Origin: Mesostigma viride
Lineage: Eukaryota; Streptophyta; Mesostigmatophyceae; Mesostigmatales; Mesostigmataceae
Assembly (NCBI GenBank): GCA_009746045.1
Contig: RPFO01000080.1
Location: forward strand, 4,813,556 to 4,877,555
Length of the DNA: 64,000 nucleotides
Reading direction: 5' to 3'
In this document: positions 5,563-50,534 of the stretch, piece after piece
How positions within the stretch are numbered: position 1 is the stretch's first letter
Layout of the letters: every line of letters starts with the position of its first letter
Notes under the pieces: generated by a model
What the model saw: the letters and a program-made list of their open reading frames with translations, nothing else
The model's database searches: none
What the model was told of the DNA's origin: nothing
Position numbers and translations under genes: made by a program

Positions 5563-6150
<588 letters not shown>

Positions 6151-7125: not shown

Positions 7126-7767
7126 GGGTTATCTCTGCAGGTAGTACCCAAAATTTGTCGATAAGGAGTGATGGAGGGGCACGATCACCAATCACCTCAG
7201 CAGCTTGCTTTACGGCACATAACCATTGGGAATATTGTGAACTACCGATTTCAGCCAACAGGAATTGACAAAATCACAGGAGTGCGAAAAATATTCGAAA
7301 TCCTTATTATGATGATAATTCGGACAGTCAGAATAAAATTATGTTGCAGATCGAAAGAACTGTCAACTGAAGGCCACAAACATTTGTCAACTATCCACAA
7401 AGTTCACTACAGAAAGATCTCCGATAAAATACACAATATATACTGGCACCTTAGTACAAAATATTGGAGCCCCACTTACTAGAAAATACGCAAAAAGAGT
7501 AGGGCGTCGTCTATCCGTAGAGAGTCCCCTCAACTTATTTTAAACCGGTTCCGGCCCCTCCGGGGCTTCCTCGTTAATCACCATCGCAATCAGCCATTGG
7601 TCAACCTCCTTGCTCATGTCGACGTCGGCTTGCCTTCCGTCGCGGCGCACGCGTGCATGTACTGGGAGGGCCGGAGCGACGCAGAGATAGCAATTCACCA
7701 GCTCGGCCTGGCGTGACGGTGGCCAATCCGCCACATCGAGCGTGAAATACAGGGGGTCATTCTTATC

Positions 7768-9202
7768 CAGTGATAGGAAATACGTTTTGCAATACGAGAA
7801 ATACGCTAAACACGGAATACGGACTTTGAGATTTTGCCGTATCGCGAAAATACGCAAATAAACGAAAATACGGTGCACGCGCGCTTTTGCACGCAAAAGG
7901 CGCGTTTCGACCAAGGTTTCGACGTTTCGATGGTCCCGCGCGCGCCAGACCACTTGCGGTCAACTTGTCATAGGCGAAAACTTAGTAATTCTACCATGTC
8001 TTATCGAATGCACTGCCGTAGTGCAGGCCCAATAACCAAGGTACAAGGCCACCTTTTTGGCAAAGGTGCCATGCATGGCGGCTCCATCAATACAGATTAC
8101 GCTTCTGGAGAGGGTTATGCCGGGCAAGCTTAAGAAATATAACCTGATTGCCCGAAAATAGGCCGTATCACGATTGGTAGCTTCCTCAAGGATTGGACAT
8201 GCATTTTTCTGACCGATTTTAATGTGCTACCTAATGGCAATGGAAAGCACTGCGATTTTTCTTGCCACAAGTTCGGATTGCAAGGCACAACTTTCGGTGC
8301 AACTTAATTAATTGCTGCTATATCAGTTAGTTTCATTATCATTAATTCCCGACGCTTCCATGCAAAGGCGGTCCTTATTTGCAGCAATTGCCGATTCTTT
8401 CACAGATGTTTGAGATGCCGCATTAAGTGCAAACTTTACGGGCATCGACTGGAAAGAGTTGAAGTCGGGTATGGGGCATTGCGGAGGTATTATTGGTTGC
8501 TTTTAAGCTGCTATTGATTGGATCACCGTACGAGTCGGTGTCGCATGTCTTATATGCGGACTTTTAGGCGGTCGGCCAATTTAGGTGTTGCAACTTCCTT
8601 GTGTTGACAGCTCGACCTTTGATATGGCTTGTTACAGCTAGTCGAACAATGGATGTACGTTATTGCCAGTTGATGTCTAAGTAAACGTGTCAATGGCTCA
8701 GTATGGAAACAATTATCGGAAAGCATTAGAGTCGGGAGTTCAACGATCTTTCAAAATGCAGAACAGGGTTTCTTCTTCTACCGGGTTAGTTAGTCTAGGA
8801 CAGGTCAGATCCTGGGGTCGAGGTGGAGGAGGACCAGGTCGTAACACCTGTATAGCCTAAGGTGTTGTACATAGCCTATTTCAACTAGTTACCACCTACC
8901 TCGAGTGGTTGATAGAGAGGTGTAGTGGACCAGCATGGCCGATGTGCCTACACATGGTGCGGTCAAGCTTGGAATCACGCTTTCTAACTGCTATAAGTGT
9001 TAGTTTGGCAAAAGGTTTTTTGCAAAAAGTGATGCTGAAAGGTTGAATTCCCATGTTGCATCCTTGAAATGCTCAAAAAGCGCTTAAAAAGTTAGTTACC
9101 GTATTTTTACCGTATTTGCCGTATTTGGCGTATTTCGTATTTACCGTATTGGTATTTTGGGTTCCGTATCCGTATTTCCCGTATTCGTATTTCCTATCAC
9201 TG
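7768..9202. mobile_element. Non-autonomous hAT-like DNA transposon
   Basis: The element begins CAGTGATAGGAAATACG and ends with its exact inverse, a 17 bp terminal inverted repeat. TTCTTATC flanks it at 7760-7767 and 9203-9210, an 8 bp target duplication. The left palindrome arm shows the uninterrupted site near 3945-3960. An 8 bp duplication with ends starting CAGTG is typical of the hAT superfamily. Both ends hold many AATACG / CGTATT hexamers (about 100 bp on the left, about 115 bp on the right), like the subterminal binding sites of hAT transposases. The inside has no transposase-length frame, so movement would depend on an enzyme supplied elsewhere. Confidence 0.9.
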
Positions 9203-23228: not shown

Positions 23229-24080
23229 TTAAGTATGGAGTAGCTGTGTGTATCCTAGAACCGAGACAATCTGCCTGTGCAGCGTGCTGCGACTAAAGGT
23301 GGCGTATACATGGGGACGTTGCTTGAGAAAATTCTTGACCTGCTTTAGCATAATGCACTGGTTGTATCCTTTCAAAATCAGACCGTGCAACAGGCGTACA
23401 ATTACCTCCTTGATGAAGTCCTGCTTGTATGCACAAAGCCTAGAAAAACGATGTAACTGGCTGAGGACCACACCGTATAACTTGGCTGTATCTGAGAGAG
23501 CGTCGATGGCAGGAAAAAGAATCTGGATCATGCTAAACTTCGGCTCTACTAGACGCTTGTCATAGATCCTGGTACGCCACCCACGTCGATTGTGGGTAAT
23601 GTTGAGATCAAGGTAATTGCATGAATCGCCAAAAGAAGTAAGCTTGAGCGTGAGCGAGGCTTGCGGATAAATACCTGGTCTCCCGGGAGCTTGATACAGA
23701 TGAGCATGGAAGCTAGGGTTGTCCATGGAAATAACATCATCAATATATCTACAGGTGTGCAAATTGCACAAAACGTGTATGTGTCTGTTTGTCCCTTCAG
23801 AAATAAGTTGTTCCATTAAGTCGAGCTCAAATGTATACAGATACAAGTTGGCTAACAGCCCGGCGCAATTTGTCCCCATAGGAATGCCAATCGTTCGCTT
23901 GTAAACCTGACCTGCAAAGGAGATAAACGTATTGTCGACTAGCAATTTGATCCACTGCTTGAGACGACTAGCGGTGACGAGCTTGGCGCTAGCTCTTGGT
24001 GTAACCTTGCGCACTTCCTCAGCGGTAAGCCATGTCGCTACACCACCTGAAGTAGATGATGCCGGCGCGAGCAGTTCCAT
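23229..24080 (-). CDS. Reverse transcriptase of an unusual retroelement, partial
   Basis: A 283-residue open frame. At about residues 67-95 it has 'TIGIPMGTNCAGLLANLYLY' (RT motif with the GIPMG core). The catalytic box 'YIDD' follows at about residue 112, then 'YLDLNIT' and 'YDKR' further on. The combination GIPMGTNCA...YIDD...YLDL...YDKR belongs to a distinct group of RT-like proteins found in scattered eukaryote genomes, different from the YADD LINEs elsewhere in this window. N-terminal RT motifs are not seen in frame upstream, so the copy is probably truncated. I see no LTRs, endonuclease or integrase next to it. The aspartates of the active site are present, so the fragment itself is not obviously dead. 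Confidence 0.75.
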   Translation of the reverse strand: MELLAPASSTSGGVATWLTAEEVRKVTPRASAKLVTASRLKQWIKLLVDNTFISFAGQVYKRTIGIPMGTNCAGLLANLYLYTFELDLMEQLISEGTNRHIHVLCNLHTCRYIDDVISMDNPSFHAHLYQAPGRPGIYPQASLTLKLTSFGDSCNYLDLNITHNRRGWRTRIYDKRLVEPKFSMIQILFPAIDALSDTAKLYGVVLSQLHRFSRLCAYKQDFIKEVIVRLLHGLILKGYNQCIMLKQVKNFLKQRPHVYATFSRSTLHRQIVSVLGYTQLLHT

Positions 24081-26880
24081 AGATTATGCGTAGGTCTTCC
24101 GTTGGCCAGGACTCAGGAGCTCTTGTTGAACGGAAGCTATACATACGGTACTCGCTGATTCGGGCAAACCTGCGCGTGCGTCACGTGACCCCCGGCCACA
24201 ACTCGCGACGGACCCTGGACTGACGCGTGTACAAAACGGAAGCCCACTGTGGGCTGCGTGCTTCTGCGTATGCTCGCTTCATCATGCATATTTATCAGCT
24301 CACAAGGTTTTGACTGCCGCGGCCTCAGGATGTGGGTTTTCAAACCAACTTGGATAAAATGTTGGCAGGAGCTTCGATTACAGTTTTCTTGGGAATGGGC
24401 GGGGAAGCCGGACGCTCGAGCGGCACGGCGAAATGCTGAATGTAACTAAGTTTTGCAAGCTATGCGTGAGTGCTTACTCCGCAAGAATGGAGCGTACAGC
24501 ACCTGGCTCTCGGAGTGTTAACTAAGGAGGTGAAATCCGTACTTGGCGCACCGGGCGCGGCAGAGGGTAACAGTGGCGATTACCGCAGCATTCACGGAAG
24601 GTACGAACCTGGACGGAATGGAACCGTATGAGACATCATATGGGTTTTACGCCGGGCTTGCTTTGCAATCGAGCCAACCGTTAATATTTGAGTGATTCTC
24701 GCCATAGTCCTTTGCTCGGTAGTAGTACAACATATGGTTTAATACTTCGTCCACCGCCCACGCCCCCGAAGCACGTTGGTGGATTTGCCGCGTTGGGTAG
24801 CCGTTGATGCGCTTAGGTAGCGATTTGGATCATAGTGCGGAAGGCGTGGGCACATGCGCGTTGGTCGAGAGGTATACCAGAGCGAGAGGTATACCAGTGT
24901 TACCTCAGCAACTGGGATGGTAGCGCTCTTCCTCAACAGCCCTGATAGCCAGCTGTAATCCTGATAATTGGGCGAGGCACACCCCATTGCCAGGGCTACA
25001 GGCGCACTCCGCTGTATATATACTGTACTTGCTTGTAGCCAAGTATAACCGGCATTGCTAGTACAATAAGTACTACAACTCTATATGGCAGGATCTCAGG
25101 TTGCCGCAAGTATATATAATATGGGCAGTTTGGGGTACCACTTTTTGCTTCTTATGCTGTGTACTAGGTGTAGTATGGTACACCATCATAGTATGGTGAT
25201 ATCACAATAGTATAACCATGCTGCACTACGGCACCGTGTACTAGGGTATACTATGGCGGTATTACTACAATAGGATACCCGTGCTGCGCCGTGCCATTAT
25301 CAATGTCAAAGGCAAGCACTTGATCCATTCGTGCTAAGAAACTGCCGCGATATTTTTCCTGCTGCTATAACCGGAAAGGCAGCAAGACGTGCATGCCTGG
25401 CTAAGCCTGGGTGCCGCCGCCTAGCTGGCCGCCTCCATGGGCCTATGTGGTCAGGATTATGGCATGTGATGGCACATGATGGCATATGGTGAGTCGTGCG
25501 GTCATTGGCTGAGAATCTATCGTAGGCTTCATTTATGCTTGCATTCTCCTAGGCTTTGTTTATGCTTGCACTCTCCTAGGCGTTGCTTATGCTTGGCTCC
25601 TGGGCTGCGTTTATTATTGTCATTGCGCTCTCATAGGCTCAGCCCTCGAGGGCTAGCTCGTGAGGGGAGATCATTTGGGCTGTTTGAGGGTGAGCTCCTC
25701 CCCACCCCAACAAACTGCACTCTCCTACAGCACCCCAACAAACTGCACTCTCCTACAGCACCCCAACAAACTGCACTCTCCTACAGCACCCCAACAACCT
25801 GCACTCTCCTTGTAGGCACGTTTAGACAGGCACTCACCGATCCTTGGTGTTGCCTTGCGGAGTGGTAGACCGCCCGACAGCGACCGCACTTGTCATCCCT
25901 AAGTTTGCCTTGTGACGCGGTAGACTCCAAATTCCCGATATTTAGGATATTCGTGTAACTTATGAGTGTACAATTTTAACTGTACACTTATGGTACACTT
26001 GCACCTCTGCCTCGCGAGGCAGTAGAGGGGCAGCCACTGGGCGAGGTGTCCCAGTAGGTGTCCCAAACATCTTCTGCAGGAGGTTGTCACAGGAGATGCC
26101 ACTCGGGTCGTCGGCGTTTGGAGGCAAATGCACAAGGCCACGGTCATCGGCTGAAGTTTGTGGACATGCTTCGCTTACAGTAATTCACGCCCTCAGTTGG
26201 GTTTTCTTAAGTTGGGCTCACGCCTTGAGTTGGGTTTTCTTAAGTTGGGTCGCCAAGGGTTTGACAACATCCTAGTAAAACTTTGTTTGTTCAAACTAGT
26301 TCAGATGAGCAGTAGTATGTGTTTAGTATCAAGGAGACAACCAGCAGTATCTTTAGTTCTCGCCTCAAGTTGGGTTCCCACAGGGTCGGGCTTCCTAAAA
26401 CTAGCAAAACTTTGTTCAAACTAGTTCAGATTAGCATGTGGACAGGCTTCACTTAGCAAAGTTTAGTACTGTTCCACCAAGGGTGCTTGTTACTTAAACA
26501 ATTGGGGCTTAAACAATTTTTTCCCTTGATGTTGGGTTGACGTTTTTATGTATGGGATGGTGATGTCCGTGGCACGCACCACATTGAATCGTCAGCCATT
26601 CAAGCGATTAAGCCATCATTGTGCGCATGAGTGGGCCGCGCTAATACTTGTGCGCGTGGGTGGCCGAGCTGATGCTGGCGCGCATGGGTGGCCGCGCTCG
26701 TGTTCATGGGTGGCCACGCTAATGCTCGCGCAGATGGGTACAGCGGTGTGCCCCCGCGTTTTTGCATCTGTGCATGTCACCAGCGCTGGTGGCGACAGGC
26801 TTTCTTGTCACCTTCCGGCAAATGTTGAAGAGGCTTAGATCTCGATGCATACTATTTATCGAAGAAAGAGTTGGGCACGC
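24081..26880. other. Non-coding stretch with several short tandem repeats
   Basis: No gene is supported. Repeats seen: a GTACTAGG/ACTATGG-type segment at 25,165-25,290; four copies of a 27 bp unit (ACTCTCCTACAGCACCCCAA) at about 25,700-25,810; two copies of an AGTTGGGTTTTCTTAAGTTG unit at 26,190-26,250; and about four copies of a ~30 bp unit (GGGTGGCCGCGCTAATGCT-like) at 26,615-26,740. Confidence 0.5.
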
Positions 26881-33062: not shown

Positions 33063-33349
33063 TTAATTCTTGCCCGCAGGGGGCGTCCACATCTTGTGGT
33101 TGATCATCAGGTCCCCGCCCCTCCAGTACACCTTGGGCTTCTGGGGATCCTGCTTGTTGTATGGTGTATGCCTGTAGTAAATCGAGCTTCACTAGAGTTG
33201 CAGGGTTGCGGGCACCACCACAGCCCGAATCACTATGTTTTGCACATGTTACCCCCAATTAACGGCGTGGGGTTGGTATCATGCATGATCATAAGCAGCA
33301 ACTCGAATGCGCGGTCACCAAGATGCTACGTAGTGTGCTTACTATAATT

Positions 33350-34320
33350 AGTTCCATCCATCCCATCCCCCTTTACCCCACCATGCCCACTGCAGACCGG
33401 CGTCTGGCAGGGTTGCGTCCTGTCGCCGTACCTGTTTATTATTGTAGTGGATTATGTTATGCGCCAGGCACGTGGTAGCTTTGCTAGCATTGCAGGCCCG
33501 CGTGCCCCTGGCCTAGCGATCACGGACGAGCTTGGAGAAGGGGGGCCGACTAACAAGCAGAATTTACTAGCTGACCTCATTTATGCCGACGACATCACGC
33601 TCATCGAGAAGCCGGAGTCTGCCCAACTTTGGCTGGACTGCCTGGCGCTCGAGGCTCGGGCGGTTGGTCTAGAAATCAGCCCCAAAACGGAGGCCCTGGC
33701 CCTCGGCATGGCAGGGCCCCCACCCGCCTCTTAGACGACATCGAGGTCAACTACCCTACTTCAGGCCGCTTCAAGCTGCTCGGCAGTTGGCTTCCCGACT
33801 GCGAGGACGACCTGACGACACGGATCGGCATGGCGTGGGCGCACCTCCATGACCACCGCCGCTGGTGGAGCAACCCCACCCTACCCCTGATCGTCAAGCG
33901 TGACCTCTTCAAGGTCGTCATTCTGACGATCCTGACCTACGGCGCCGAGACCTGGACACTGACGCAGGAGCTCGAGCAACGACTCGACGGCAGCGTCACC
34001 AAGATGCTGCGCAAGGCCCTTATATAACATCCCCTTTGGTTTGCACATATTAGTAATGAGGATCTGTACGCTGATTTGCCCTATGTTTCCCACATTATAA
34101 GGCACAGGCGCCTGGGCCTAGCCGGGCACCTGGCCCGCACAGATCAGGTAGACACATCAGATAGACTAGCTGGCACCAAGCACGCCCAGCCTGGGCGATA
34201 TGTCCTCACCTGGCGTGCCCCAGGCCGCGCGCGGCAGGGCCGCCACCCGTGGACTTTTCGTGATAGACTCGGCATGGACATGTGCTACACTAGACTACAT
34301 GTGCTACACTAGGCTACCAT
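33350..34320 (+). pseudogene. Second LINE reverse transcriptase fragment
   Basis: A second, related copy begins mid-RT with 'GVWQGCVLS' and 'PYLFIIVVD' type sequence near 33,395, has YADD at 33,582-33,593, 'LLGSWLPDCEDDLTTRIG' and 'LTYGAETWTLT' (to about 33,965), and a C-terminal 'GHLARTDQVDT' part to about 34,310. There are frame changes near 33,730 and 34,020. It is closer in sequence to the minus-strand copy at 52,420-54,065 than to its neighbour at 30,820-33,062. A patch at 33,297-33,330 resembling the later 'SVTKMLR' region suggests rearrangement at its left edge. Confidence 0.82.
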
Positions 34321-36223: not shown

Positions 36224-39200
36224 ATGTTTTTCACCGGGGAGGTGAAAACGCAGAGGAAGGTTGATTTGCGTGGGGCCAGTGCAGCGAAGGATAGAAACCG
36301 CGAGCTGCTGTTACGCGAGGCCAGAGAAACACGTGAGAAGCGTCATCGGTTGAAGCAAGAGACCCGAAGCAGTGTGATCATCCAGGTACGCCGCTTTTAG
36401 TGGCACGTTGGATAACCTGTTTCCCCCTGTGGATGCACCATTGCAAGGAAACGGTGCACTGGGGACATGATTCCGGCGATTCCTCTAATTGCCCACCATG
36501 ACGGCTTTGCAGCGCCTCGTTTGCCCCCGGAATTCACCGCCGTTCTGCTCGTTAAGTCTTGTGTCTGTTTGGAACTCTGTTTGGAACGATCTCTTGTCGA
36601 CCCTGAGAAATTGAAAGACTATTCTAGTTTCGCCCCAGTAACCAAGACACGCATGAAATAACGCTGCTATACCAGTACCACTTGCCTGACGATTGATTGG
36701 TCCTTCGAACAATTATGTGCTGGCTAAGTTTCACATTCATGGGATCTGCGTTTGAAAGAGTCGGCAGCTACGAATTACCCATGATGGGCAAGGTGCGGCT
36801 ATTAGTTGGCACAATAAAGCTCATATCCCCCTACTTTGAATAATCGCAGATCATTTCCCGTGACTTGGAAGATTCACGGCATTGACGGGCCTTTGCTAGG
36901 CGGGCCACGCAGCTGCCGATTATAAGCATTTTGATCAGGCCCTGTGCCCGTTTTGGATAATCCATGATGGATGACATCTTTTATGCATTCTCGTTGGTCA
37001 TCACCTAAGCATGTCGATAAAATCTTCTGCAAGGTTAGCTCGCCCCATGGTAAAGGAGATTCTTCATCTGTGCTTTTTTTGGTCGTGCTAGTTTGGAATG
37101 CGTCCGCTGACAGCACAATCACCATGTGACTGATTACCTTGGCTTGTGTTCTTGGCAGCGTGTCGGAGGCTCTGGATGCTTATTAGATTCTTGCGTGCTT
37201 TCTGATGAATTGAAATTAATCAAAACCACGTTACTGGTACCAATAAATGGACCTTCAACCTCTATACACAACAAGGAGGGAGAGTGTCCTAGCTTTTCTC
37301 GCAGCCTCAAGTGAGCAGGCCACAGAGGACTCCCTCTGCATAATGGTGCAGGCCCAACTGTGGGTGCAATAACGCAAGAAGTAGCAAAGGCATACCGGAT
37401 GCAGCAAGGCTGCTGCGTCATCCATGGAGGCCACAGATATAGGCTTGGAACTCATTAAGAGGCACCGGTTTGGGAGAATATGAAGGTCTCTTCCAGAGCC
37501 TGAGCGGTTTTAGGGGCACACCCAGGGTTTACCCACAACCCCCATGCATGGGTATATTTTGGTGACCAACCGTTCTGCTGGTCTGTTTTTGGTGACCAAC
37601 CGTTCTGTTGGTCTACGTACCAGGCGTTCTTTCGGGGGCGGAGGTCCAAAGGTCGCTTCCGTGACGTGGTCAGACAGTCATGGAAGTCCAAGTACGGGGA
37701 GCAGGCGGACAAGTTGGTCAGGTATGCATGCGTGAACGGGAGATGCGAGAGTCCAGAAAGAGAGGTCATGCACTGCACTGGGCTACCCTAGCTTGGGCCT
37801 CGGAGAGCTCATCCATGTTTATGAGTGCGGTTGCAGGCAAGGTGTTTGCTTTTTAATGTATGGGGAAGCTTTGTCAAGCTTTTTGTTTATTTCCGGCGGC
37901 CTTTGCAAACAAGCCGGTATCACAGGGGTACCACATGAGCACTGTCAGCTTTTCCATACATGAAAAATAGCTGCGCCATCGATGGGCAATCCATGTGGGC
38001 TGGCTTACGAGTTTTAAAATTAGTGGCGTCATCAAAGGGTTCAATGATATCTAGCAAAAAAAAAAAGAAAAGGAAGAAAGGAACCAGTCCTGGGTTGCAA
38101 TGCAATGCAGGGAATGCTGCCTAGTGCCACTGCTTTTGCAGGCTTTCATGTTTGACACGTCTTCCCCTTTTTCCCCTCCCTCCCCTTTTCCTCCCCCCCT
38201 CCCCCATTCCCAGCAGGTCCTCCCCGTGAGTGTCCCTGTGCCTGTTTTATTTTTGCTCCTTGGAAAATCCTGTGATCGTGGCTTTCTAGGCAGGGCACCC
38301 AGCCATTTGCTACCATTCATTGCTACCACGGGCAGCTTATGCGTGGGACGGCTATGCGCTGATAAGCTCCGCGCATGCAAGTGGGACACGATGTCGTGCG
38401 TGTGGCATCATTAATTAATTAGTTAATTCATTAATTAATAAGCACGTGACTGCTTATTGAGTGTGGCATCATGCGGGGCACTATCTCTTATGTGACATCA
38501 TGCACTCTTTTGATTCATATTGCTGGGACAGTTCGACATCATGGACCCATTATGTAGGCTATGCATTTCTTAGGCGATGGAAACCCCCGCCCGCAGGCAT
38601 GTCTGAGTTGAGCTGGCATGCCATCGATGGTGTGCTTGGCTGCAGGAGGGATGCATTACTCGACGGCCAGGTGGCGTCAGCCCAGGTGCCAGCACATTTC
38701 CTGCCGGATCTGCTCTTCTTCTGCGACGCCCGTCGGGACGATGACGTTGTGTGCCTGACGTCAGCGTGCGCCACGCTGATGTCATGGTTGTCAGACGCCT
38801 CGCCATCAGGTAAGGATTGATACTAGTATAGCTTGTATTGTATCTACAGTCAAGTCAATGCTTTTGTGCCGCTCAGCCCAGCCTTCGCTCTGGCTATGCC
38901 CTTATTTTCAATACAATTGTGCCCCCCCCCCCCCCCCCCCCCCACCCCACCCCAACCAACCAACCAACCAACCAACCAACCAACCAACCAACCAACCAAC
39001 CAACCAACCAACCAACCAACCAACCAACCAACCAACCAACCAACCAACCAACCAACCAACCAACCAACCAACCAACCAACCAACCAACCAACCAACCAAC
39101 CAACCAACCAACCAACCAACCAACCAACCAACCAACCAACCAACCAACCAACCAACCAACCAACCAACCACGCCCCATTCCATTTTTTCTTTCTTTCCGG

Positions 39201-42200
39201 TCGATGGGCGATGGGCGATGGGCGATGGGCGATGGGCGATGGGCGATGGGCGATGGGGGATGGGCGATGGGCGATGGGCGATGGGCGATGGGCGATGGGC
39301 GATGGGCGATGGGCGATGGGCGATGGGCGATGGGCGATGGGCGATGGGCGATGGGCGATGGGCGATGGGCGATGGGCGATGGTCCCCATTCTGTCACCTT
39401 TTCGCCTTATCGCATTCGTCCTCATGCAAGCCCTTTCTGTTGCCTGTGATGATGACTTCTTTTTCTTTTCCTTTTTCTTTTTGTTCGTTGAGACCAGGTT
39501 TTTGCTTCTGTCTAGGGTGACATGTCGACTGTCCCGTATCTAGCAATGCGTTTGAAGGGCATCTTATATGTAGGGTGTGTGATTAAATATGTCTACGTGA
39601 TATTAATCAGTTCAATCCTATATGCAACTTAGCTAAGTGGCATGTAGCTACTGTTAGGTGATGTTCAAAGCTAATTGGTAGTTTCAGCACAATGTCTTTT
39701 GAAGGTCTAGGAGTTGCTGGTTTATGTATGTCGTCACGTGTACCAGCCGCGTAGCTTTGGTAGATTACAACCCCAGTTTTCCGCATCAGGTGTCGCATGC
39801 TCATGGACATGTAGACTTTGTTAGCAGACCGGGCTGGGTATTCCCTCATCTCCGCTGCCACCTTGCTAGGGGTTGAAGGTTCCTTTATTGGTATTCACGT
39901 GACGCGGTCGTGTGTTTTTAATGTAATTTTTAAATTTTATCTGCTTACCTCCGCTGTCCATCCCCCTCTTGTACCTGGGGACACCCGCCCTGTTGTGTCC
40001 GCTTGTACAGCCTCTCTAGACAGCCTCTTTATTCTTTTGTCACCCCTAATGGCATGTTTTATTTATTTGGATGGCCCTTTTGGGGGGCATGCCCTCTCTA
40101 GACAACCTTTCTTTCTTTTCACCAGTGATGACACATTGCTTTTGCGTACCCACGTTGGGACACCTCCCCTGCCAGGGACGCGGGACCCAGCGGATCTCCT
40201 GGCTCTGGCCGAAGATGCGCAGGAATGGCGGGTTCCAGCAGGCACCGCTCATGAGGGGACGGATGGGGTGGCGGGTGCGCATGGGACAGCCAATGTGCAG
40301 GACCCACACGTGCCAGCTGGCGGGGAGCCACAAGGGGAGCCCATGGAGGGGGCGATGACTCGAGGATATGCCAGGGTGTCCCTGGACGCGCTGTCGTCGC
40401 TGCGCGCGCGCCGTCTCGCGCTGCTGTGCCTGCGGGTACTGGTGGACCACCGGTGAGGAAGGGGGCATTTGTTCGTGGGTCACCGGTAGGGAAACATTTG
40501 TTAGTGTTTCTGGACCGGTGAGGAGCATTTTCGTCGAGGGGATGCATGCTCGTGTCCGTGGGCCACAAGTGAGGGGATGTGTGGGCAGACAAAGGGCTGA
40601 TGGGGTGTTGCGGGCGGGCCAGTTGGTGTTGTCGGTGGACCACCGGGGGGCATGCGGGTGTGTTGTTGCAGGAGGGTGAGAGGGGAGCTGATGGGTTGTT
40701 GCAGGAGGAGCAGAGGGGAGCAAATGAGGGGTTGGAGTCTTGCAAGTAAACCAAAGCAGATTATAAGTTAAGAGTTGCTGCAAAATAGGTTGTTTTGGGA
40801 GGCTTGTATATCCCTACTTTATCTATATTTTCCCCACTTGGCTGCATGGTATGGCCTTGTTCTTATCGCACACTGTCACACCTGTGTCATGCTCGTTACC
40901 CGCCCCACTGCCACCACCACCACCCACGGCCGGTTGGCAGGGAGAAGTACCGGGACGCCTTCCTGCCCCCGCTCCCTGAGGCACCAGGTGTCGGCCTCCG
41001 GAGTGCCGGCGACGCGGGCCGCGTCTTTCTAGAGACGCTGGTGGCGCTGGCGCTGTCACCGCGGGTGGGGCGAGGGGTGTTGCGAGCGCTGGTGGCGGCG
41101 CGGCTGTTCCCTTCGTTGCGGCGCCTGCTGCATGAGACGGTGAGGAGTAGAGACGATGTAGATGGAAAGTTTAGAGTCAATACATGTAGAGTAAGTTGAC
41201 ATTGTACGCGAAGAAATGTTGACTGTGGTTGAGATAGCTGCGTCTTGCCTGTCCCCACTGCCCTCCTGCCTGTCCCCACTGCCCTCTCGCCTGTCCCCAT
41301 GGCCCAATTGCCTGTCCTCAATGCCTTCTTGGCTGTCTCTGCTTTTGTCTATGCCCCCCGCCCCCCGCCCCATGCCCTGCAGTTCTGGAGGCCAGCAGGC
41401 GCAGCCATGCCGCCTCCTGCCTCGTGGGAACCGATCCCGTCCACCGCCACGGCGGCAAGGGCCTTCTCGATAACAGGGACGCCATCGACGGGCAGCCAGC
41501 AGCGCTCGCCCGCGCTTGAAGTCACCTCCCTGCTGCTCACGCTGGGGTGGATCCGCGCGGTCGCGTATGACGGCAGTAATGTCGGCGTGGACGTGGCTGC
41601 GTGCGCTAGCAGCGGTGCTGGCGTGGGCGCAGCGGCAGAGGCGGGTTTGTCGCTGTGTCCATCGGCCAATCTGCTCTCGCTCCCTCTGGTGTGGACCGTA
41701 CTGCCGTCGTTCAAGGTGCGTTGCCTTCCTTGGGTTGAAAAACGAAGAATGTCAAATCGTACATCGATGTAATATTTCATTCATTTTTATTGAATGTACA
41801 TTTTTATCGCTGCTCGTTTTTACAACATTTTCAACAATCCAACCCACACTACCTGTTGATTGTCCTCAAACCTGTGGGTGTTTTTTTATGCTTTGAAGCT
41901 TGTAGGTGTTCCTCACAGGTGCGCGTCATCTACCGCATTGTTGATCGACCTCTTGCAAGGCGGCCCGCGGACCCACCCACCTCCTTAATCTCCCCATTGA
42001 CTCCCACTATTCTCTCCTTTTCTTCTGCTCGCCACCTGCCTCTGCCCCCCCCCAAGGTCGCCGGCGTCACCCTGTGGACCTACGCGGTGCATCGGCTAGC
42101 ACAAGAGATCGCGTCGCCATGGCCACCATCATCTTCCTCTTCCTCTTCAAGCACGACCCTGCCCACGACCACGACTGGTGCCTTGCCCGCCTCAACGACG

Positions 42201-45200
42201 TCTAGTTTTAGCACCACCAGCAGCAGCATTGGCGGCTCCACGGGGCCGGGGGCCGCCACCTCCCACCACCCCTTGCTGCCGCATTTACCTGGAGAGACAA
42301 TCTGCCCGGCGGCCGCGTGTCTGTTGGGAAACCTCGCAGAGATGGCTGTCCCTGCCCTGTCATCCGTCACCTCCACGGCCGCGAAGCATGCGGCCCACCA
42401 TGCTTTCCCTTCCACCAGGGCCTCCCTGCACGGCGAGCTGGCGTTCCTGCAGGTGGCCAACGCACTCCTGCCACACGTCCCCATGCTCGCGCCCGTGCGC
42501 GTAGATGGTGCCAGTGTGGAGGGTGCGGCGAACGAGGACGGGGATGATGGTGGCGCTGGTGGGAGGGGGAGGGTGGATGGCCACGACAACGATGATGTCA
42601 TGTCGATGGGGGATGCGGACGGTGACGTGCATATGGCGGATTCCAGCGTTGCGGTGGATAGTTCTAGTGCTAGTCTGCTGGGTCGGGCGGGGAGAGTGTC
42701 CTCGGCCTCGGCACGTAGTGGCCAAGCAGGTATGGGGACGGCAGGGAGCAGTAAGGCGGTGGTGGGGCCACCTCCGGGTGCGGTACGGAGCCAGCTGGAA
42801 AGTCTCGGGGAGCCGCGGAGACTGCTGTCCTTGCTGGTGCGGCGGGTGCTGCCGTTGCCGGGTGAGCATGCGGATGCCAGTGTTATCATGGCGGGGCAGG
42901 CGGAGTCTCCGGCAGTTGCGGGGAACGAGGGCGCGCCGGCTCTTCCTGGGTGGCTGGGGGACCTCGTTGCCACGCCTGGGAAGGCATTGGTTGAAGGAGG
43001 GACAGGAGTAGGAGGAGCAGGAGGAAAAGGGCTGGGAGTTTCCATGCCACTGGTGACTTCAAACGGTGGCATCCGTCACGGTCTACATTATGATCATGAT
43101 AATCTTGCTGGTGCGGCCACGAGGTCACCGTGGGCAGCGTCCCCTGCCCTGACTTCAACACTACCATGGGTGGCATTTCCTGTCCCAACTTTTGTCCCGC
43201 CCCCGCCCCCGCCCCCCTTCCTGGTCGCCCACCACCTGAGCTCCTTCCTCTCCCACCTCATCTCCACGCGCCCCCTCATGCACACGGTGGCACTAGCACT
43301 CGCGTTGTCCGTCAACCTCGTGCCCCGCATGTGGCCGCTGCTGCAGGTGTGGCACAAGGAAGGGCGCTTTGGGGGGGCCGGGGCGACGAGTGCGGCCCAT
43401 CAGGGGCAACCCGGTGGGGGCTCGGCCCCTCAGGGGCCGTTCGTCTCGAGCGCCAATCATGCTGTGGCACCAGCTGCTAGTGCAGGTTATACAGTGGCGG
43501 TCATGGGTATGACGACGGCGACGTATACGGTGACGGCCGCGGGTGTGAGCGCTGCCGCCGCAGGCAATATGGCCAGACCTTTGGCTCCTGCGGCTGCCAG
43601 GAGTAGTGGCGGGTATCTGGCGGGGTCAGGGAGCGATGGACTCGTGAGGCAGGATGCGTCGCAGGCGGCGGTTCGGGCGGGGGATGGGGGGGCGGATGCG
43701 GGTGGCGGGGGTGTGGCCAGGGGCATCGGGAGGGCCGACGAGTCGTCGTTGTCGATGATGATGTCGTTGGACCCGATGCAACCGCTGGTCCTATTCTGCT
43801 CCGTGTATAGGTACGATGAGGGTAGGCGTCTATGTGACACGGTAAGTGGGTAGGTTAGTGGCATGTGAGGGGTCGAGAAATGTGCTGCAGGCTCGTTTTC
43901 AGTGTTCTGTGCTCGTCTGCTCGTTTTACTGGTGGCTGTGTTGTGGGTGCCGTTGGTGGGTATCGGATCAGTAGGCTTGTTCCTGGATGCTTCTACGGCT
44001 TCATTCTGCGGCTTCGCGAGGCAGCCCCTTTATATATGTTATCTTGTTCTCCCGCTTGTTATGGACAAGGATCCAGGTCATGGTTGCACCTGACCCTTGC
44101 TATTCGCTTTTCCTCGCGCTGGCGACGGTGGACCACGAACCGTTCCCTCACTGGCGGTCACTGGCTCGCCTCGCGGTCACTGGTCTTCTCAAATGTACTC
44201 TTTAACTGTGGCATGCAGCCACCTGCTGGTCACCGTGGGCAATGGGGAGTGCCAGAACCCATAAATGACCAACATTTTCCTAATCCACCCCCCTACAGGG
44301 GTTGCCTTGCGAAGCCGTCGACCTCGCTGGGTATCGTGGTTTTAAAATGCAGAATCTCGTTTCAATCACCATGTATCTCTTTTATTTGGTGTTGGGCGAC
44401 AACGAATGGTCGTAGCGCATGAACCTCCTCTCTCGCTAACTTCACTGTGAACGTTTGGCATGGCATGCAGCCACCTGCTGGTCACTGGGGACAATGATGA
44501 GTTAACGAGTGCCTGGCTGTTATCTTTAATGCTGTTGCGTGCAGCCACCTGCTGGTTACCGTGGATGACGACGAGTTCTCGGGTCGCGGCCACTGCCTCT
44601 CCATGGCGGACGTCACGCAGCTCGTGGGCATCCTCAAGGACGTGTTGTGGAACCTGGTGTGGGTGCAGGAGGCGAGGCCAGGTGAGGCGCTTGTGGGTTG
44701 ATGGATGTGCGCGAGGGGTTGGCGTGATGAGGTGCGTGTGGGCGTGCAGGAGGCGAGGCCAGGTGAGGTGGGGGGGGCAGGCAGCGATGAACAGTCGCAG
44801 GATATTAAAGTCTGAGATAGATGTCTAGATAGTTAATTATGGAGTTGTCATTAGCAGCATTGGTGAGACAAGATGTGGGTGGGGCGACCCAGTGGGACAA
44901 ACGTACGATAATGGGGGGCGCTGACAAAAAGGCGCAGAGCGAATCTGATGTATGAGGTTGAGGCTTACAGGTGGGTAGCGGTAATGGGTTGGGGAGGGAA
45001 GGAAGGCGGGTGTGGAAGATTAAGGTATGGAATGGATGACGTGTCAACATGGTGTTGCTACTGGCATCATTGCCACTCTCCTTGGGGAGGCGCATGAGCC
45101 ATCCTGAGTAGTTTGTCATAATTCCGTTATTTGTCACCATTCTATATTTGTTGCGATGCCATTCAAATCTTCGTTCCCTGGTCTTGAACCGTGTATACTT

Positions 45201-48200
45201 CTGGTAAATGATATAATTCGGCGCTCTGCTTGAGAGCGTTGGGAGAGCCTTTGCAGCGGATGCCATGTCATGTTTTCCCATTGTGCCATGAAGTATCAGT
45301 GTAATAATCTAAGCATAGTGCCATTAAGTATCATAGTAATGATCTAAGCATAGTAATAATCTAAGTATCATAGTAATAATCTAAGCATGGTGCCATGGTA
45401 TCATAGTAATGATCTAAGCATAGTAATAATCTAAGTATCATAGTAATAATCTAAGCATGGTGCCATGGTATCATAGTAATGATCTAAGCATGGTGCCATT
45501 AAGTATCATAGTAATAATCTAAGCATGGTGCCATGGTATCATAGTAATAATCTAAGCATGGTGCCATTAAGTACCATAGTAATAATCTAAGCATGGTGCC
45601 ATGGTATCATAGTAATGATCTAAGCATGGTGCCATCAAGTATCATAGTAATAATCTAAGCATGGTGCCATTAAGTATCATAGTAATGATCTAAGCATGGT
45701 GCCATTAAGTATCATAGTAATGATCTAAGCATGGTGCCATGGTATCATAGTAATGATCTAAGCATGGTGCCATTAAGTATCATAGTAATGATCTAAGCAT
45801 GGTGCCATGGTATCATAGTAATAATCTAAGCATGGTGCCATTAAGTATCACAGTAACAATCTAAGCATGGTGCCATTAAGTATCATAGTAATGATCTAAG
45901 CATGGTGCCATGGTATCATAGTAATAATCTAAGCATGGTGCCATTAAGTATCATAGCAATAATCTAAGCATGGTGCCATGGTATCATAGTAATAATCTAA
46001 GCATGGTGCCATTAAGTATCATAGTAATGATCTAAGCATGGTGCCATGGTATCATAGTGATAATCTAAGCATGGTGCCATGGTATCATAGTAATGATCTA
46101 AGCCATAGTTGAGAACATCACGAAGTTTCATAAATACAGTTGGCGATGCTTTGGTTTTAGTTTCATAAATACAGGTGGCAATGCTTTGTTTCTAGTTTCA
46201 TACATGCAACGTGCGATGCTTTGCGTGGGTACCCGCATGCGCGCAGGCGAGAAGACGAGCGTGGGCGCGTCCTCCCCCCCCCCCTCGGCCAACATCCACA
46301 AGATCTCTCGCCTGCTCTCCGAGCTGCACTCGCGCAACTCCCACCACCCGTTCACCTCTGCGGCCTCCTTCCACGCGACCGGCGTGAACTACGACCGCTT
46401 CCGAATTGAGGTCGAGGACGGCCGCGCCCGCGCGACGCTGGTCCTAAAAGAGGCCCCGTTCATGATCCCGTTCCACGAGCGGGTCGCGGTGTACCAGGCG
46501 CTCGTGCGGGCCGATAGAATCAAGCATCAGGGGGAGATGGCGAGGTTCAACATATACTCGGGGCATGGCCAGACGGTGCTCTCGATACGGAGGAACTATG
46601 TCGTGGAGGATGGGTTTGCAGGTATCGAGGGCCTCGGGGACGCGCTGAAGGGACTGGTGAGTGGCCGCGTTTTGAAGGGACTGGTGAATGGCCACGTTAA
46701 AGGGGCCACGTTTTGAAGGGAGGAAGTTGGTTGGGAACAGTGCTTGCGCGAAGGGTTTAATGAAACGTCGAAATGTTGACGTTTTGCCCTGACACTTGGG
46801 TCAAAATGTTGACGTCTTGCCCCGGCGTAGCGGCGAACAAAATTATTGCTTTTTGGATGGGGGGCTGGCCACAGCCTGCCAATTTGGGGAATAGCAGGGG
46901 TGCAAACATAACCGTTGTCATATCGGTAAAGGAAGGGCAGGGGGGGGGGGGGGGGGGGGACGGCCACAATAGCTTTGTTTCCATTAAGACATCTGAGCCG
47001 GCCGACCCTCGTCCCGCAGTTTCCCTTCTGTATCCGCTGGTGCAGGGCACATAAGACACCTTCTCAGTGCTCCTCTCTTCTCAGTGCCCCTTCTGTTCTC
47101 CTCCGCAAAAGCAGCCTCGTTATTCAGTACCCTTGCCCACTTGGCGAACAATGCCCACTTGGCACGATGGTGCCTACCCTGCCATTGGTCAGCCAAAAAC
47201 TCTACCAACATCCACCGCATTTTTTTCTACAGCACTGTTCTGGCATCCGAAGCCGGTTCTCCCACTTTTCTTTCCTGAGCAAGCTCGCAATGGAGCAGAC
47301 TTGGAAAACACGCCACGTAGATTATCGCTGTTGCTGTATGTATTATCGCTGTTGCAAGTGCGTCCTTTTCCCCAAGCTGCCTTTTGTGCAACATAGTGAC
47401 AGGCTGCCTATAAGACGCAATGCTCCATGATGAGTCTCAGCACTTGATAAGATGTAAAGTGGTGCTGGTACTCGAACACACTACAAAGTGGCTTGAAGCC
47501 TGCGTCCGTCTATCCAGTTTTACCTCCCCAGGTGCGCATCTGCTACATACACAAAATTTTGCCCTAGCACCTCGACAGGGTTTGTTGGGGTTTTGCTAAT
47601 GCTATTTATACCCACCAGGTGCGCATCCGCTACGTGAACACGCTCTCATGCCATGTTCTGAGCCCTTTGGTACAGGTTCTCAATATACTGTAAAAATGAG
47701 AAATAAAAATGCATTCAGGCCTTAAGGTTTCTCAATCCGCACGCGGAAGCAAGAAGCCTCCAGGGTGGGAGGGAGGGGAAAGAAACAATTGCGGATCATT
47801 GCCTGCCTAGCTTGCTTAAGGCATGGCCCGCCGACACACAAGCTGACATCATCCTAAATTAATTAACACCAGCATGCGTCACACGCCGGCCTGAACAGTG
47901 CTGATAACGCCACCACAAACAACGTGGCCACGCACCCCCAGGCTAGTGCGTTAACCGTACAGGTAGTTGTACAAGGTTCCCAAGTCTGACAAACAATAAA
48001 CTCGCCCATCGACCCCCTTGGGCCGGTCCGAATGCACTATACAATAATTAATCACGACTCACTAAAGAAAACAAATCAGCCAAAGATTCGTTAAGCAGCC
48101 AGCCGACCCTACAGGTCCCCACCTAACCTCAGCTGGTGCAACCAAACACGAATCTTTGCAAGCAAGACGTATAACACCTACAATTAATTTTCTCGGACCA

Positions 48201-50534
48201 CTAATTAATAGCCACCGACCCTTATAAACAACCGGGTCATCCAAGGAAAATTCGGGCGAACAGGAAACCCTTTGTACAGATCGAATCAGTCAGCCCATGT
48301 CGCAGACAGCCTTCCACATCCAGGCCAAGGCATAGCGGCCCTATCTTTCCCGCATGCGTTAATTAAACTATATTCAGAGAAAACCGATTCCTCATTACCG
48401 TTCAGGTGGGCGTCAGGTTTGCTCCGTGAAGGCGCTGTCTTGCCACAATGCCAGCCCTATGGTCAATTAAACACAAGGTCTCGTTTTTATTGCACATGGT
48501 TCACGATGCCCTTGCCCCCAGGTGCGCGTCCGCTACGTGAACGAGGCGGAATGTGTGGTGGCAATATTAGTATACATATATATAGTATACGCTAGGGCCT
48601 TGGTCTACTATACAAACGAAGAGGCTGAAAGCTTACGTTCGCTACTCCTGCCCTACCTTACTGTGCCCGGCCTTGAACCCCCCCAGGTCCGCATCCGCTA
48701 CGTGAACGAGCTGGGCGCGGAGGAGGCCGGCGTGGATGGCGGCGGCCTGTTCAAGGAGTTCCTCGAGCTGCTCTGCAAGGCCGCGTTCGACCCGCAGCAT
48801 GGGCTGTTCCGCGTCACGTCCGACAACATGCTGTACCCGAACCCGGCATCCCATCTGGTGTATCCCGACCATGCAAAGTACTTCACGTTTCTCGGGCGCA
48901 TCCTCGGCAAGGTGAGCAGTCGCGTTGTTTGATTAGTAAGCTTTATATAATCTTAGGTTGTGTCCTAGTCCCGCCTGGTGTACGCGGACAATGCAGATTA
49001 CCGTTCACCTTCCTTGGGCGCATCCTGGGCAAGGTGAGGAGCAGCGCTGCTTGATTAGTAAGCTCTTTTTCATCTTAGTTAGGATCTTGCTCCCACAAGG
49101 TGTATGCGGACTACGCAAGGTACCTGTCACCCTCCCTGGGTGCATCCTGGGCAAGGTGAGGGCTGGCTTGGTTAATGTATTCGGCGCAGTTTTAGCTTGG
49201 TGGCTGACTATGACTAGCGAGGCGCAGGTTCGGCAAGCTGGAGTTCCCCTTTTGTGAAATGCATCCTCATCATTTTCATACCTCATCAGCCCTTCCCTAA
49301 TAACAGTCCCACCCTGTGCAGTCCCCCTTAATTCCCTAAACACGTACATCCGTTGCCCTGGATTCTTTCCCAACAGGCCATGTACGAGGGCATACTGGTG
49401 GAGCTCCCCTTTGCCAAGTTCTTCCTGAGCAAGCTGCTCGGCAAGCTCAACTCGCTGTCCGACCTCGCGTCGCTCGACCCCGAGCTCTACCGCAACCTGC
49501 TCTTTGTCAAGAGCTATTCGGGCGACGTCTCCGACCTGGGGCTTTTCTTCGTGGACGACCGCGATGAGTTTGGGTCCCACCAGGAGGTGGAGCTGGTCCG
49601 GGGGGGAGCCAACATCGCAGTCAACAACGACAACCGGTGAGTTTAAAGGAGACCATTATGAGTGGTGGCTATCTCCTTTGATATCCTTTTTTAAAAATAT
49701 CCTTTGTGTTGTTTGGAGGACCATCTGCCTTGACTAGGTTGTTGGCGGCATGCGGGTTTGTAGGTGGACCATGACAACTGGTGTGTCTATGAAGGGGAAC
49801 GTATCCCTCCCAGGGTCCCTCCCCCCCCGCCCCCCCACACATTCTCTCTTTTCTGCGGCATATCCCGCCACCCCTCAGTTGAAATGAAGGGTCTCATATA
49901 TCAATATAACTAAATGAGAGGGCTCCTGTCTGATGCCCCCGTCACCCTCTCACCCTGTCTTCCCTGCAGCTTTGAGTACATCGTGCGCAAGGCTGACTAC
50001 AAGCTCAACCAGCAGATCAAGCTCCAGTCGGCCGCCTTCCTCCACGGTCTAACGAGCATGATCGAGCCGTCGTGGCTGCGCATGTTCGACGAGGAGGAGC
50101 TCCACGCGATGATCTCCGGGACGGACGAGGCGCTGGATGTCGAGGACATGCGGGCCCATGCGGTATACGCAGGGGGCTACAGCGCAGGCCACCCCGTGAT
50201 GCGGTCCTTCTGGGACGTCGTGCAGGAGATGTCGCCGCAGCAGCAGCGGGCGCTGCTCAAGTTCTCGACCGCGTGTTCACGGCCGCCGCTGCTCGGATTC
50301 CGGTACTTGGAGCCCAAGTTTTGTATACAGAGGGTTGGGGGCGAGGGCGGCGGGGGCAGCGGGGACATGATGGATGACGACGAGAGCCAGGCGGCCGCGC
50401 AGGGCACGGACCGGCTCCCGACGGCGTCGACGTGCATGAACTTGTTGAAACTGCCGCCGTATCGGAGCAAGAGGACGATCCGGGAGAAGCTGTTGTATGC
50501 CATCAGCGCGGGGGCAGGGTTTGACCTCAGCTAG
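36224..50534 (+). CDS. UPL6: HECT-type E3 ubiquitin ligase of the UPL6 / UBE3C family, 12 exons
   Basis: Exons: 36224-36385, 37624-37721, 38574-38809, 40176-40452, 40941-41139, 41383-41715, 42057-43810, 44545-44681, 46247-46656, 48687-48911, 49377-49636, 49970-50534. Every intron is GT-AG and all phases agree, giving 4,656 coding bases (1,551 residues). Exon 1 starts '[19 protein letters not shown]', the signature start of UPL6/UBE3C. Exons 1-2 join at an IQ motif ([10 protein letters not shown]). Exons 9-12 encode the HECT domain, with '[19 protein letters not shown]', '[14 protein letters not shown]' at the end, and the catalytic cysteine in '[12 protein letters not shown]' (codon 50,433-50,435). 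The enzyme takes ubiquitin from an E2 onto this cysteine; UBE3C/Hul5 act at the proteasome. Plant UPL6 has about 1,030 residues; the excess lies mostly in the low-complexity exon 7. The gene symbol is by family resemblance. Confidence 0.92.
37558..37623 (+). repeat. 29 bp direct duplication ending at the exon 2 acceptor
   Basis: GGTGACCAACCGTTCTGYTG followed by GTCT occurs twice in tandem directly before the acceptor of exon 2 (AG at 37,622-37,623). Confidence 0.8.
38412..38460 (-). mobile_element. 49 bp retroposon tail inserted in intron 2, with 12 bp target duplication
   Basis: GTGTGGCATCAT flanks the insertion at 38,400-38,411 and 38,461-38,472. The insert is a TTAATTAA-type tail followed by AAGCACGTGACTGCTTATTGA, i.e. 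little more than the tail and terminal hairpin of the CACGTGAC retroposon family seen at 51,817 and 52,672. Confidence 0.85.
38922..39382 (+). repeat. Compound array in intron 3: poly-C, (CCAA)n and (GATGGGC)n
   Basis: A C run at about 38,922-38,943, then (CCAA)n at 38,953-39,169, a 34 bp spacer, then a 7 bp unit (GATGGGC)n at 39,204-39,382 with one GATGGGG variant. All lie within intron 3 (38,810-40,175) of the HECT gene. The translated frames are artefacts. Confidence 0.95.
40430..40665 (+). repeat. Repeated decayed copies of the exon 4 end and donor
   Basis: Exon 4 ends GTGGACCACCG and is followed by the donor GTGAGG. In the next 200 bases are GTGGGTCACCG-GTAGGG, TTCTGGACCG-GTGAGG, GTGGGCCACAAG-TGAGG and GTGGACCACCG-GGGGGC, each with traces of the GCATTTGTTCG that follows the true donor. 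Confidence 0.7.
42057..43810 (+). other. Exon 7: expanded low-complexity region of the HECT ligase
   Basis: The exon encodes about 585 residues. The edges match the family: the '[17 protein letters not shown]'-like part near 42,310-42,350 and '[11 protein letters not shown]' at the end. Between them are long Ser/Thr, Gly/Ala and Asp/Gly stretches with no counterpart that I recall in UPL6. The reading frame is open throughout despite the repeats, which supports its being translated. Further small introns inside it cannot be excluded. Confidence 0.65.
44215..44770 (+). repeat. Duplicated edges of exon 8
   Basis: The exon 8 start with its acceptor, TGCAG-CCACCTGCTGGT, occurs at 44,214-44,231 and 44,466-44,483 before the true one at 44,540-44,557. 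The two upstream copies continue with similarity for about 25 more bases (GGGCAATGGGGAGT / GGGACAATGATGAGTT against GTGGATGACGACGAGTT). The exon end with donor, GCAGGAGGCGAGGCCAG-GTGAGG, is repeated at about 44,745-44,767. Confidence 0.88.
45295..46105 (+). repeat. 33-35 bp minisatellite in intron 8
   Basis: About 25 copies of a unit containing AGCATGGTGCCAT, then either TAAGTATCATAGTAATGATCT or the shorter GGTATCATAGTAATAATCT form. The two forms alternate irregularly, giving a higher-order pattern of about 68 bp. There are no unique spacers, so it is not a CRISPR array. Confidence 0.95.
46118..46235 (+). repeat. Three tandem ~36 bp copies before the exon 9 acceptor
   Basis: AGTTTCATAAATACAG followed by TGGCGATGCTTTG occurs three times with changes, the last ending about 10 bases before the acceptor region of exon 9. 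Confidence 0.8.
46640..46712 (+). repeat. Duplicated exon 9 end and donor
   Basis: GAAGGGACTG-GTGAGTGGCC at the true junction (donor 46,657) is followed by TTTTGAAGGGACTG-GTGAATGGCC at about 46,671-46,695 and a third partial TTTTGAAGGG at 46,709. Confidence 0.85.
46939..46960 (+). repeat. Poly-G run in intron 9
   Basis: About twenty consecutive G residues. Length is unreliable in any assembly. Confidence 0.9.
47525..48710 (+). repeat. Ladder of partial copies of the exon 10 start with acceptors
   Basis: The true exon 10 begins CAG-GTCCGCATCCGCTACGTG at 48,687. Copies of the acceptor and following bases occur at 47,532 (GTGCGCATCTGCTACAT), 47,619 (GTGCGCATCCGCTACGTGAA) and 48,522 (GTGCGCGTCCGCTACGTGAA). 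Each is preceded by a pyrimidine tract and AG. A weaker one is at 41,919 in intron 6 (GTGCGCGTCATCTACCGC). The copy at 48,522 is in frame with the true exon with no stop between. Confidence 0.88.
48855..49156 (+). repeat. ~121 bp tandem triplication of the exon 10 end plus donor and intron start
   Basis: The last 57 coding bases of exon 10 (from CTGGTGTATCCCGACCATGC to GGCAAG-GTGAGC) and the first 65 intron bases (with TTGATTAGTAAGCT and ATCTTAG) recur at about 48,975-49,095 and again at 49,097-49,156. The copies have drifted by substitutions and lost the frame. Confidence 0.9.

What the first reader, a model, noticed from the sequence alone, without database searches (positions are those of the whole stretch)
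40430..49160. Most intron borders of the HECT gene carry repeated partial copies of the adjacent exon edge, splice site included
At exon 4 (end), exon 8 (start and end), exon 9 (end) and exon 10 (start and end), the intron contains one to four decayed tandem copies made of 10-60 coding bases plus the splice site. Ordinary microsatellite growth would not keep choosing exon boundaries. Possible explanations are repair of breaks at splice junctions, copying through spliced or partly spliced RNA, or a process of boundary duplication that feeds alternative splicing or intron growth. I know of no named system that does this.
Basis: partly seen in the sequence, partly recalled or inferred. Interest (0 to 1): 0.88.

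Follow-up and report, generated by a model that had tools for sequence, protein, structure and literature searches.

The report
Exon-edge duplications inside neighbouring introns
In this large eukaryotic genome many introns carry decaying copies of the neighbouring exon's edge together with its splice site, fossils of short local DNA duplications that turn up at exon borders more often than a simple chance model predicts.

Summary
The copies are real. In the UBE3C-type HECT gene (36224-50531), 5 of 22 junctions have strong intronic copies of exon edge plus splice site and 3 have weak ones, so "most borders" is too strong. The pattern is not special to this gene: in 20 gene regions of the same 440-Mb genome, 30 of 105 donors and 16 of 107 acceptors have a copy in the adjacent intron, same strand. 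Controls: exon interior 1 of 182, antisense 2 of 212, other-side intron 0 of 209, other genes' introns 0 of 920. With exon-only probes, 51 of 52 copies run to within 2 nt of the junction. Mismatches fit neutral decay. Best explanation: short direct DNA duplications spanning a junction, tolerated because splicing keeps the outermost site, then decaying. A uniform neutral model is not enough: two-copy duplicates are 9.1-fold (donors) and 4.9-fold (acceptors) denser at junctions than inside introns, against 1.5-1.9 simulated, and exonic reach never exceeds 63 nt (0 of 43). Why borders are favoured is open. No RNA data, relatives or organism name were available.

The parts
36224..50531 (+). UBE3C-type HECT E3 ligase gene, 12 exons as modelled: 36224-36385, 37624-37721, 38532-38809 (start uncertain), 40176-40452 (start uncertain), 40941-41139, 41383-41715, 42057-43810, 44545-44681, 46247-46656, 48687-48911, 49377-49636, 49970-50531
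   Evidence: HECT domain; best solved-structure match Ubiquitin-protein ligase E3C; exons 4-12 translate without a stop across GT-AG junctions
40481..40667 (+). Degraded partial copies of the exon 4 end and donor (40481-40506, 40514-40534, 40543-40574, 40634-40667); weak
   Evidence: scores 12-17 with a 60-nt probe; junction probe 15 against shuffle maximum 15
44206..44238 (+). Copy of the exon 8 start with acceptor (source 44532-44564)
44463..44502 (+). Second copy of the exon 8 start with acceptor (source 44537-44576)
44736..44768 (+). Copy of the exon 8 end with donor (source 44657-44687); use of it would add 81 nt with a stop codon
46673..46698 (+). Copy of the exon 9 end with donor (source 46646-46671), 27-bp tandem repeat; use of it would add 9 residues in frame
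47522..47546 (+). Copy of the exon 10 start with acceptor, farthest of three
   Evidence: score 19
47611..47644 (+). Copy of the exon 10 start with acceptor
   Evidence: score 26
48515..48545 (+). Copy of the exon 10 start with acceptor, nearest (source 48680-48710)
   Evidence: score 27
49004..49049 (+). Copy of the exon 10 end with donor (source 48882-48927), second unit of a 122-bp tandem repeat
49127..49160 (+). Third unit of the exon 10 end repeat, with donor
49768..49798 (+). Possible degraded copy of the exon 11 end with donor; marginal
   Evidence: score 14 against shuffle maximum 10; alignment

Best explanation
The copies are fossils of short direct duplications of DNA, spaced mostly 74-142 nt, that span an exon-intron border. 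Shown: copies lie beside their source, same strand, on the intron side, and nearly all run through the junction; mismatches fit a copy that decays freely while the exon changes mainly at third codon positions. Inferred: the duplication is tolerated because splicing keeps using the outermost site (first donor, last acceptor), so the extra edge simply becomes intron. Inferred: it is made by repair of staggered breaks or by slippage, as short tandem duplications are elsewhere; some copies are plain tandem, others have unrelated filler between them. Shown, cause unknown: simple duplications are several times denser at borders than inside introns. A higher rate of breakage or duplication at exon borders seems to me the likeliest reason, but that last step is not shown.
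For: 46 of 212 junctions with a copy, controls near zero. 51 of 52 copies found with exon-only probes run to within 2 nt of the junction. Codon-position mismatches 23/263, 24/266, 51/259 against 0.08, 0.08, 0.16 in simulated neutral decay (T=0.4). An exact 40-nt tandem duplication from -31 to +9 of a CCT exon end, with one later base change on one of two near-identical contigs, and a border copy whose donor is lost on one contig. A 43-bp intronic tandem duplication present on one contig only. In 22 of 43 copies the intron part of the unit is still alike beyond the null's 95th percentile. Border enrichment: against simulations.
Against: In 21 of 43 copies the intron part shows no likeness although the exon part can be 100% identical, which plain tandem duplication explains poorly; simulation gives such cases in about a third of young pairs where 13 of 20 were seen. 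Origin of the filler is unknown. Exonic reach stops at 63 nt where simulations expect 21-45% beyond it. No RNA evidence that the outermost sites are used. Hold-out 1 of 11 junctions. Five of 20 regions have no two-copy junction hit.
Confidence: 0.62

Rival explanations
1. Uniform neutral duplication only: short tandem duplications hit the genome evenly; borders look special because the exon half of the pair does not decay and duplications inside exons are purged.
For: Reproduces the codon-position pattern and much of the loss of intron likeness. All-class rates are similar at acceptors and intron interior (15.0% and 15.1%). Tandem duplication is active inside introns.
Against: Two-copy ratios 9.1 and 4.9 against 1.5-1.9, or 0.8-1.1 with exonic reach capped at 60 nt. 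Observed profile is higher and sharper than simulated. 0 of 43 copies reach beyond 63 exonic nt against 21-45% simulated.
Confidence: 0.2
2. Selection keeps the copies, for example as decoy or back-up splice sites or as U1-binding sites inside introns.
For: Excess at both donors and acceptors; most copies keep GT or AG (27 of 33, 14 of 18).
Against: Retention is about what neutral decay predicts from copy identity; mismatches show no constraint on the copy; a border copy has lost its donor on one of two contigs.
Confidence: 0.08
3. Copying through RNA: pre-mRNA or spliced RNA is reverse-transcribed and pasted back near its source.
For: Exonic sequence ends at or just past the splice site in many copies.
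Against: Copies include intron bases; hits are adjacent and same strand, none in other introns tested; exon interior is almost never copied (1 of 182).
Confidence: 0.04
4. The copies are parts of new introns or mini-exons (intron gain by boundary-crossing duplication).
For: A tandem duplication crossing an intron-exon boundary made a new intron in potato (PMC4974935, abstract); one acceptor copy here is followed at once by GTAAGG (hectA 1499).
Against: AG or GT at the outer edge of copies is not enriched (20 of 30 against 57% by chance; 10 of 16 against 61%). Using the copied donor would add stops in two of the three UBE3C cases checked.
Confidence: 0.04
5. Assembly artefact: reads collapsed or expanded at these places.
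For: Reads were not available to exclude it directly.
Against: Most copies differ from their source at scattered bases; one 40-nt example is on two contigs.
Confidence: 0.02

Closest known systems
Short tandem duplications from repair of nearby nicks or staggered breaks (rice: PMC7971508, abstract and passages; mammalian cells: PMC8355091, abstract and introduction)
   Same: Direct, adjacent, similar size; the rice paper gives tandem duplications as about 70% of events, declining beyond 125 bp; the duplications there are not confined to genes
   Different: Here simple duplications are concentrated at splice junctions and some have unrelated filler between the copies; breakpoints and enzymes were not examined
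[quoted passage not shown]
   Same: A tandem duplication crossing an intron-exon boundary
   Different: There the duplication made a new spliced intron; here the copies appear to be ignored inside the old intron (not tested by RNA)
Intron sliding and tandem duplication in Drosophila (PMC2891723, abstract and passages)
   Same: Duplicated sequence near introns affecting intron position
   Different: There duplicated exonic proto-splice sites or shifts of at most a few tens of nt in single genes; here whole edges are copied at about a fifth of the junctions sampled
Minisatellite arrays
   Same: 15 of 46 junction hits have more than one copy; one CCT exon end carries about ten 48-bp units
   Different: 31 of 46 are single copies, often with unlike sequence between source and copy
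Introners (PMC9860276 and PMC7789003, search listing only)
   Same: Genome-wide change of intron content
   Different: Introners are copies of one element; here each copy comes from its own neighbouring exon and the 31 fillers match no other region of the set

Membership tests
Short tandem duplication by break repair | Direct repeat adjacent to its source | tested here: met
   46 of 212 same strand in adjacent intron; antisense 2 of 212; other places tested 0
Short tandem duplication by break repair | Unit size mostly below about 125-200 bp | tested here: met
   29 of 43 spaced 74-142 nt, 2 smaller, 12 larger (list)
Short tandem duplication by break repair | Whole unit duplicated, intron part included | tested here: inconclusive
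   intron part alike in 22 of 43, not alike in 21 of 43
Short tandem duplication by break repair | Segregating as an insertion | tested here: inconclusive
   one 43-bp intronic case between two near-identical contigs, not at a junction; the contigs are probably haplotypes but a recent paralogue is not excluded
Short tandem duplication by break repair | Made by fill-in at staggered breaks and end joining | not testable with these tools
   needs experiments
Intron gain by tandem duplication | Duplication crosses an intron-exon boundary | tested here: met
   51 of 52 exon-probe copies run to within 2 nt of the junction
Intron gain by tandem duplication | A new intron is spliced | not testable with these tools
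   no RNA data
Introners | Inserted sequence belongs to a repeat family | tested here: not met
   31 fillers gave no match in other regions of the set or the rest of the window; the whole genome was not searched with them because the search machine did not answer
Minisatellite | Array of three or more like units | tested here: not met
   met at 15 of 46 junction hits, not at 31 of 46
RNA-mediated copying | Exonic sequence only, or copies away from the source | tested here: not met
   intron bases are included; none in the other introns tested

The most novel reading that the evidence does not exclude
Exon-intron borders are true hot spots of short DNA duplication in this lineage: something at splice junctions (breaks at the edge of exon nucleosomes, R-loops or splicing-coupled damage) copies roughly 20-60 bp of exon edge plus the splice site into the neighbouring intron, so that introns grow outward from their borders and fill with decoy splice sites that the spliceosome ignores.
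Probability: 0.4. Interest if true: 0.82.

Novelty: new variant of a known kind. Interest (0 to 1): 0.58.

Why it matters
About one junction in five in the genes sampled carries a recognisable natural duplicate of itself (46 of 212). That gives many natural tests of how the spliceosome chooses between near-identical sites about 100 nt apart: by the gene models the first donor is the one used even where the copy scores higher (11 of 33), while acceptor copies seldom score higher (2 of 18). It also makes the question of where intron sequence comes from countable: duplication at borders can be scored in any annotated genome, with strains to show gain and loss. If the border bias is mutational, exon edges would be a new class of duplication-prone site.

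Tried and rejected
Rejected readings. Mini-exons (AG before or GT after the copy): not enriched. A shared mobile insert as filler: no cross-matches for 31 fillers. Filler copied from nearby: 17 of 22 fillers did not exceed the best of 20 shuffles on either strand, 5 did, one clearly (cctB 4954, 22 against 16). GC-rich DNA as duplication-prone: no rise with GC inside introns. Frequent gene conversion from exon to copy: the three exon 10 start copies share a G where the exon has C, so they were not recently overwritten; one locus only. Large indels as the cause of the border excess: ratio stays 1.7-1.8 in simulation.

Superseded or failed analyses. The tandem/dispersed split was wrong (the extension windows shared the intervening sequence); one search replaces it. 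One search had a coordinate bug; one search replaces it. The simulation did not run. I first read the match profile as sharply bounded on the intron side; one search shows intron-side reach from 3 to over 300 nt, so I claim no fixed intron-side end. In one search the three hits (of 46) without an intron-part value fell into class II by default. Some intron-interior hits are unannotated exon edges, which makes the stated enrichments conservative. My expectation that neutral tandem duplication could not give near-identical exon parts with unlike intron parts was too strict: simulation gives it in about a third of young pairs (13 of 20 observed).

Led nowhere. Relatives of the last HECT exon: none in viral contigs or genome contigs. 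Plasmid collection: no match. Rfam: no family reached threshold in the window. 18S search to place the organism: not completed. A second copy of window 44300-44800: none beyond a 62-nt repeat. Search for reports of this pattern: directly, nearby; none of the titles and abstracts listed describes it; subscription papers and preprints are not held.

Full report
What is there. The window is part of contig C1106 of an unnamed 440-Mb genome in 2243 contigs. The gene at 36224-50531 encodes a HECT ubiquitin ligase whose last exon is closest, among solved structures, to Ubiquitin-protein ligase E3C. I placed 12 exons; exons 4 to 12 translate without a stop across GT-AG junctions; the starts of exons 3 and 4 are uncertain. 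Aligning each junction (32 exon + 16 intron nt) to its adjacent intron gives five strong hits in 22 (exon 8 start and end, exon 9 end, exon 10 start and end; 22-30 against at most 15 in 60 shuffles) and three weak ones (exon 4 end, exon 9 start, exon 11 end).

Is it only this gene? No. With Pfam matches to HECT and Cpn60_TCP1 as anchors I took 19 further gene regions and built gene models with a small coding and splice-site model written for the purpose. In all 20 regions (154 kb), after dropping low-complexity probes (1 of 106 donors, 1 of 108 acceptors, 467 of 6158 interior probes), 30 of 105 donors and 16 of 107 acceptors have a copy scoring 18 or more within 800 nt of intron. For exons anchored by domain matches the counts are 21 of 70 and 9 of 70. 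Controls: exon-interior probes 1 of 182; junction probes against introns of other genes 0 of 920, in the first nine regions; antisense 2 of 212, other-side intron 0 of 209, next intron 0 of 155. Without the window gene the two-copy rates hardly change (0.191, 0.102, interior 0.021). Five of 20 regions have no two-copy junction hit. Two later loci used as a hold-out gave 1 of 6 donors and 0 of 5 acceptors, exon interior 0 of 10: too small to confirm or contradict the rate.

Anatomy. Exon-only probes (34 nt, no intron bases) found 34 donor-side copies at 22 of 105 junctions and 18 acceptor-side copies at 14 of 107. Of these 52, 51 run to within 2 nt of the junction; among those, GT is present in 27 of 33 and AG in 14 of 18. 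The copies therefore come from contiguous stretches that cross the border. Exonic reach is 7-63 nt, and spacing between source and copy is 74-142 nt in 29 of 43, smaller in 2, larger in 12. A sliding 30-nt probe has a sharp maximum of non-tandem hits over the junction (13-15%), values mostly of 1-5% in the intron (up to 8% at one acceptor-side stretch), and none beyond 80 nt into the exon. In 22 of 43 copies the intron part of the presumed unit is still alike beyond the null's 95th percentile, in 21 it is not, although the exon part can be 100% identical. The former are plain tandem duplications; the latter look like duplications with unrelated filler between the copies, though simulated plain duplications also lose intron likeness in about a third of young pairs.

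Age and decay. In anchored copies mismatches between exon and copy fall at codon positions 1, 2, 3 in 23/263, 24/266 and 51/259 cases. A neutral simulation in which the copy mutates freely and the exon only at third positions gives 0.08, 0.08, 0.16 (T=0.4). Splice dinucleotides are lost at about the rate this implies. The copied donor scores higher than the used one in 11 of 33 cases, the copied acceptor in 2 of 18. There is no sign that copies are maintained, and donor copies do not seem to be purged.

Fresh events. Contigs C1641 and C887 carry near-identical versions of one CCT gene, probably haplotypes: introns differ at 42 of 2447 sites with 10 indels, exons at 3 of 552. They share a 40-nt tandem duplication from -31 to +9 of an exon end, exact on one contig and with one base changed on the other; another border copy has lost its donor on one contig. 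One intron has an extra 43-bp tandem duplication on one contig only, and a 3.1-kb stretch is present on one only. Short tandem duplication is therefore active here.

Is the border favoured? Counting all hits: donors 28.6%, acceptors 15.0%, intron interior 15.1%; interior hits are mostly multi-copy (741 of 860). Counting two-copy duplicates only: donors 20/105, acceptors 11/107, interior 119/5691. The ratios are 9.1 (bootstrap over genes 6.6-12.6) and 4.9 (1.6-10.5), run from about 4 to 11 and 3 to 8 over four probe shapes and four cut-offs, and are not explained by GC. Simulated uniform duplication with neutral decay gives 1.5-1.9, with large indels 1.7-1.8, and 0.8-1.1 if exonic reach is capped at 60 nt. 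The simulated sliding profile is low and broad where the observed one is high and sharp. Simulations expect 21-45% of copies to reach more than 63 nt into the exon; 0 of 43 does. A cap could come from selection against copies long enough to be recognised as exons (inference), but that makes the border excess larger, not smaller.

Mechanism. Direct orientation, adjacency, size and one length polymorphism fit short tandem duplications. In rice these are the commonest insertions and decline beyond 125 bp (PMC7971508, abstract and passages); in mammalian cells they arise from fill-in at staggered breaks (PMC8355091, abstract and introduction). A boundary-crossing tandem duplication that made a new intron is described in potato (PMC4974935, abstract). 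What is added here is how many junctions carry such a copy, and the concentration at borders. I infer that splicing ignores the copies because the outermost site is used; RNA data are needed. RNA-templated copying and selection for decoys are not supported.

Limits. None of the listed results of the literature searches describes this pattern, in an open-licence library only.

Noticed in passing
window 3946-7768: Large inverted repeat: arms 4149-5153 and 6561-7565 (1005 nt, 98% complementary) with further arms outside and inside, around arrays of 4-bp units. Encoded frames had no Pfam match.
   Followed up: partly
window 23229-24083 (-) and 33348-33734 (+): Reverse transcriptase fragments (PF00078; the first below the curated cut-off, the second above it).
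   Followed up: no
G000 C1107:653012-1311265: A tandem cluster of HECT-domain matches, 22 of the 66 listed, most in open frames of about 1150-1270 codons, so apparently intronless.
   Followed up: no
window 44332-44393 (intron 7): A 62-nt stretch has 11 further matches (84-89% identity) on several other contigs: a dispersed repeat inside the intron that also holds the exon 8 start copies.
   Followed up: no
L063 1446-4569 (C1641) against L064 (C887): About 3.1 kb present in one of two near-identical contigs and absent from the other, within an intron of a CCT gene.
   Followed up: no
L055 4983-5469: 48-bp array of about ten nearly identical units that starts inside a CCT exon end and repeats exon edge and donor in each unit.
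   Followed up: partly
window 38922-39382 (intron 3) and 45279-46103 (intron 8): Long simple and minisatellite arrays (CCAA, CGATGGG; 68-bp units), showing that repeat growth is also strong away from exon borders.
   Followed up: no
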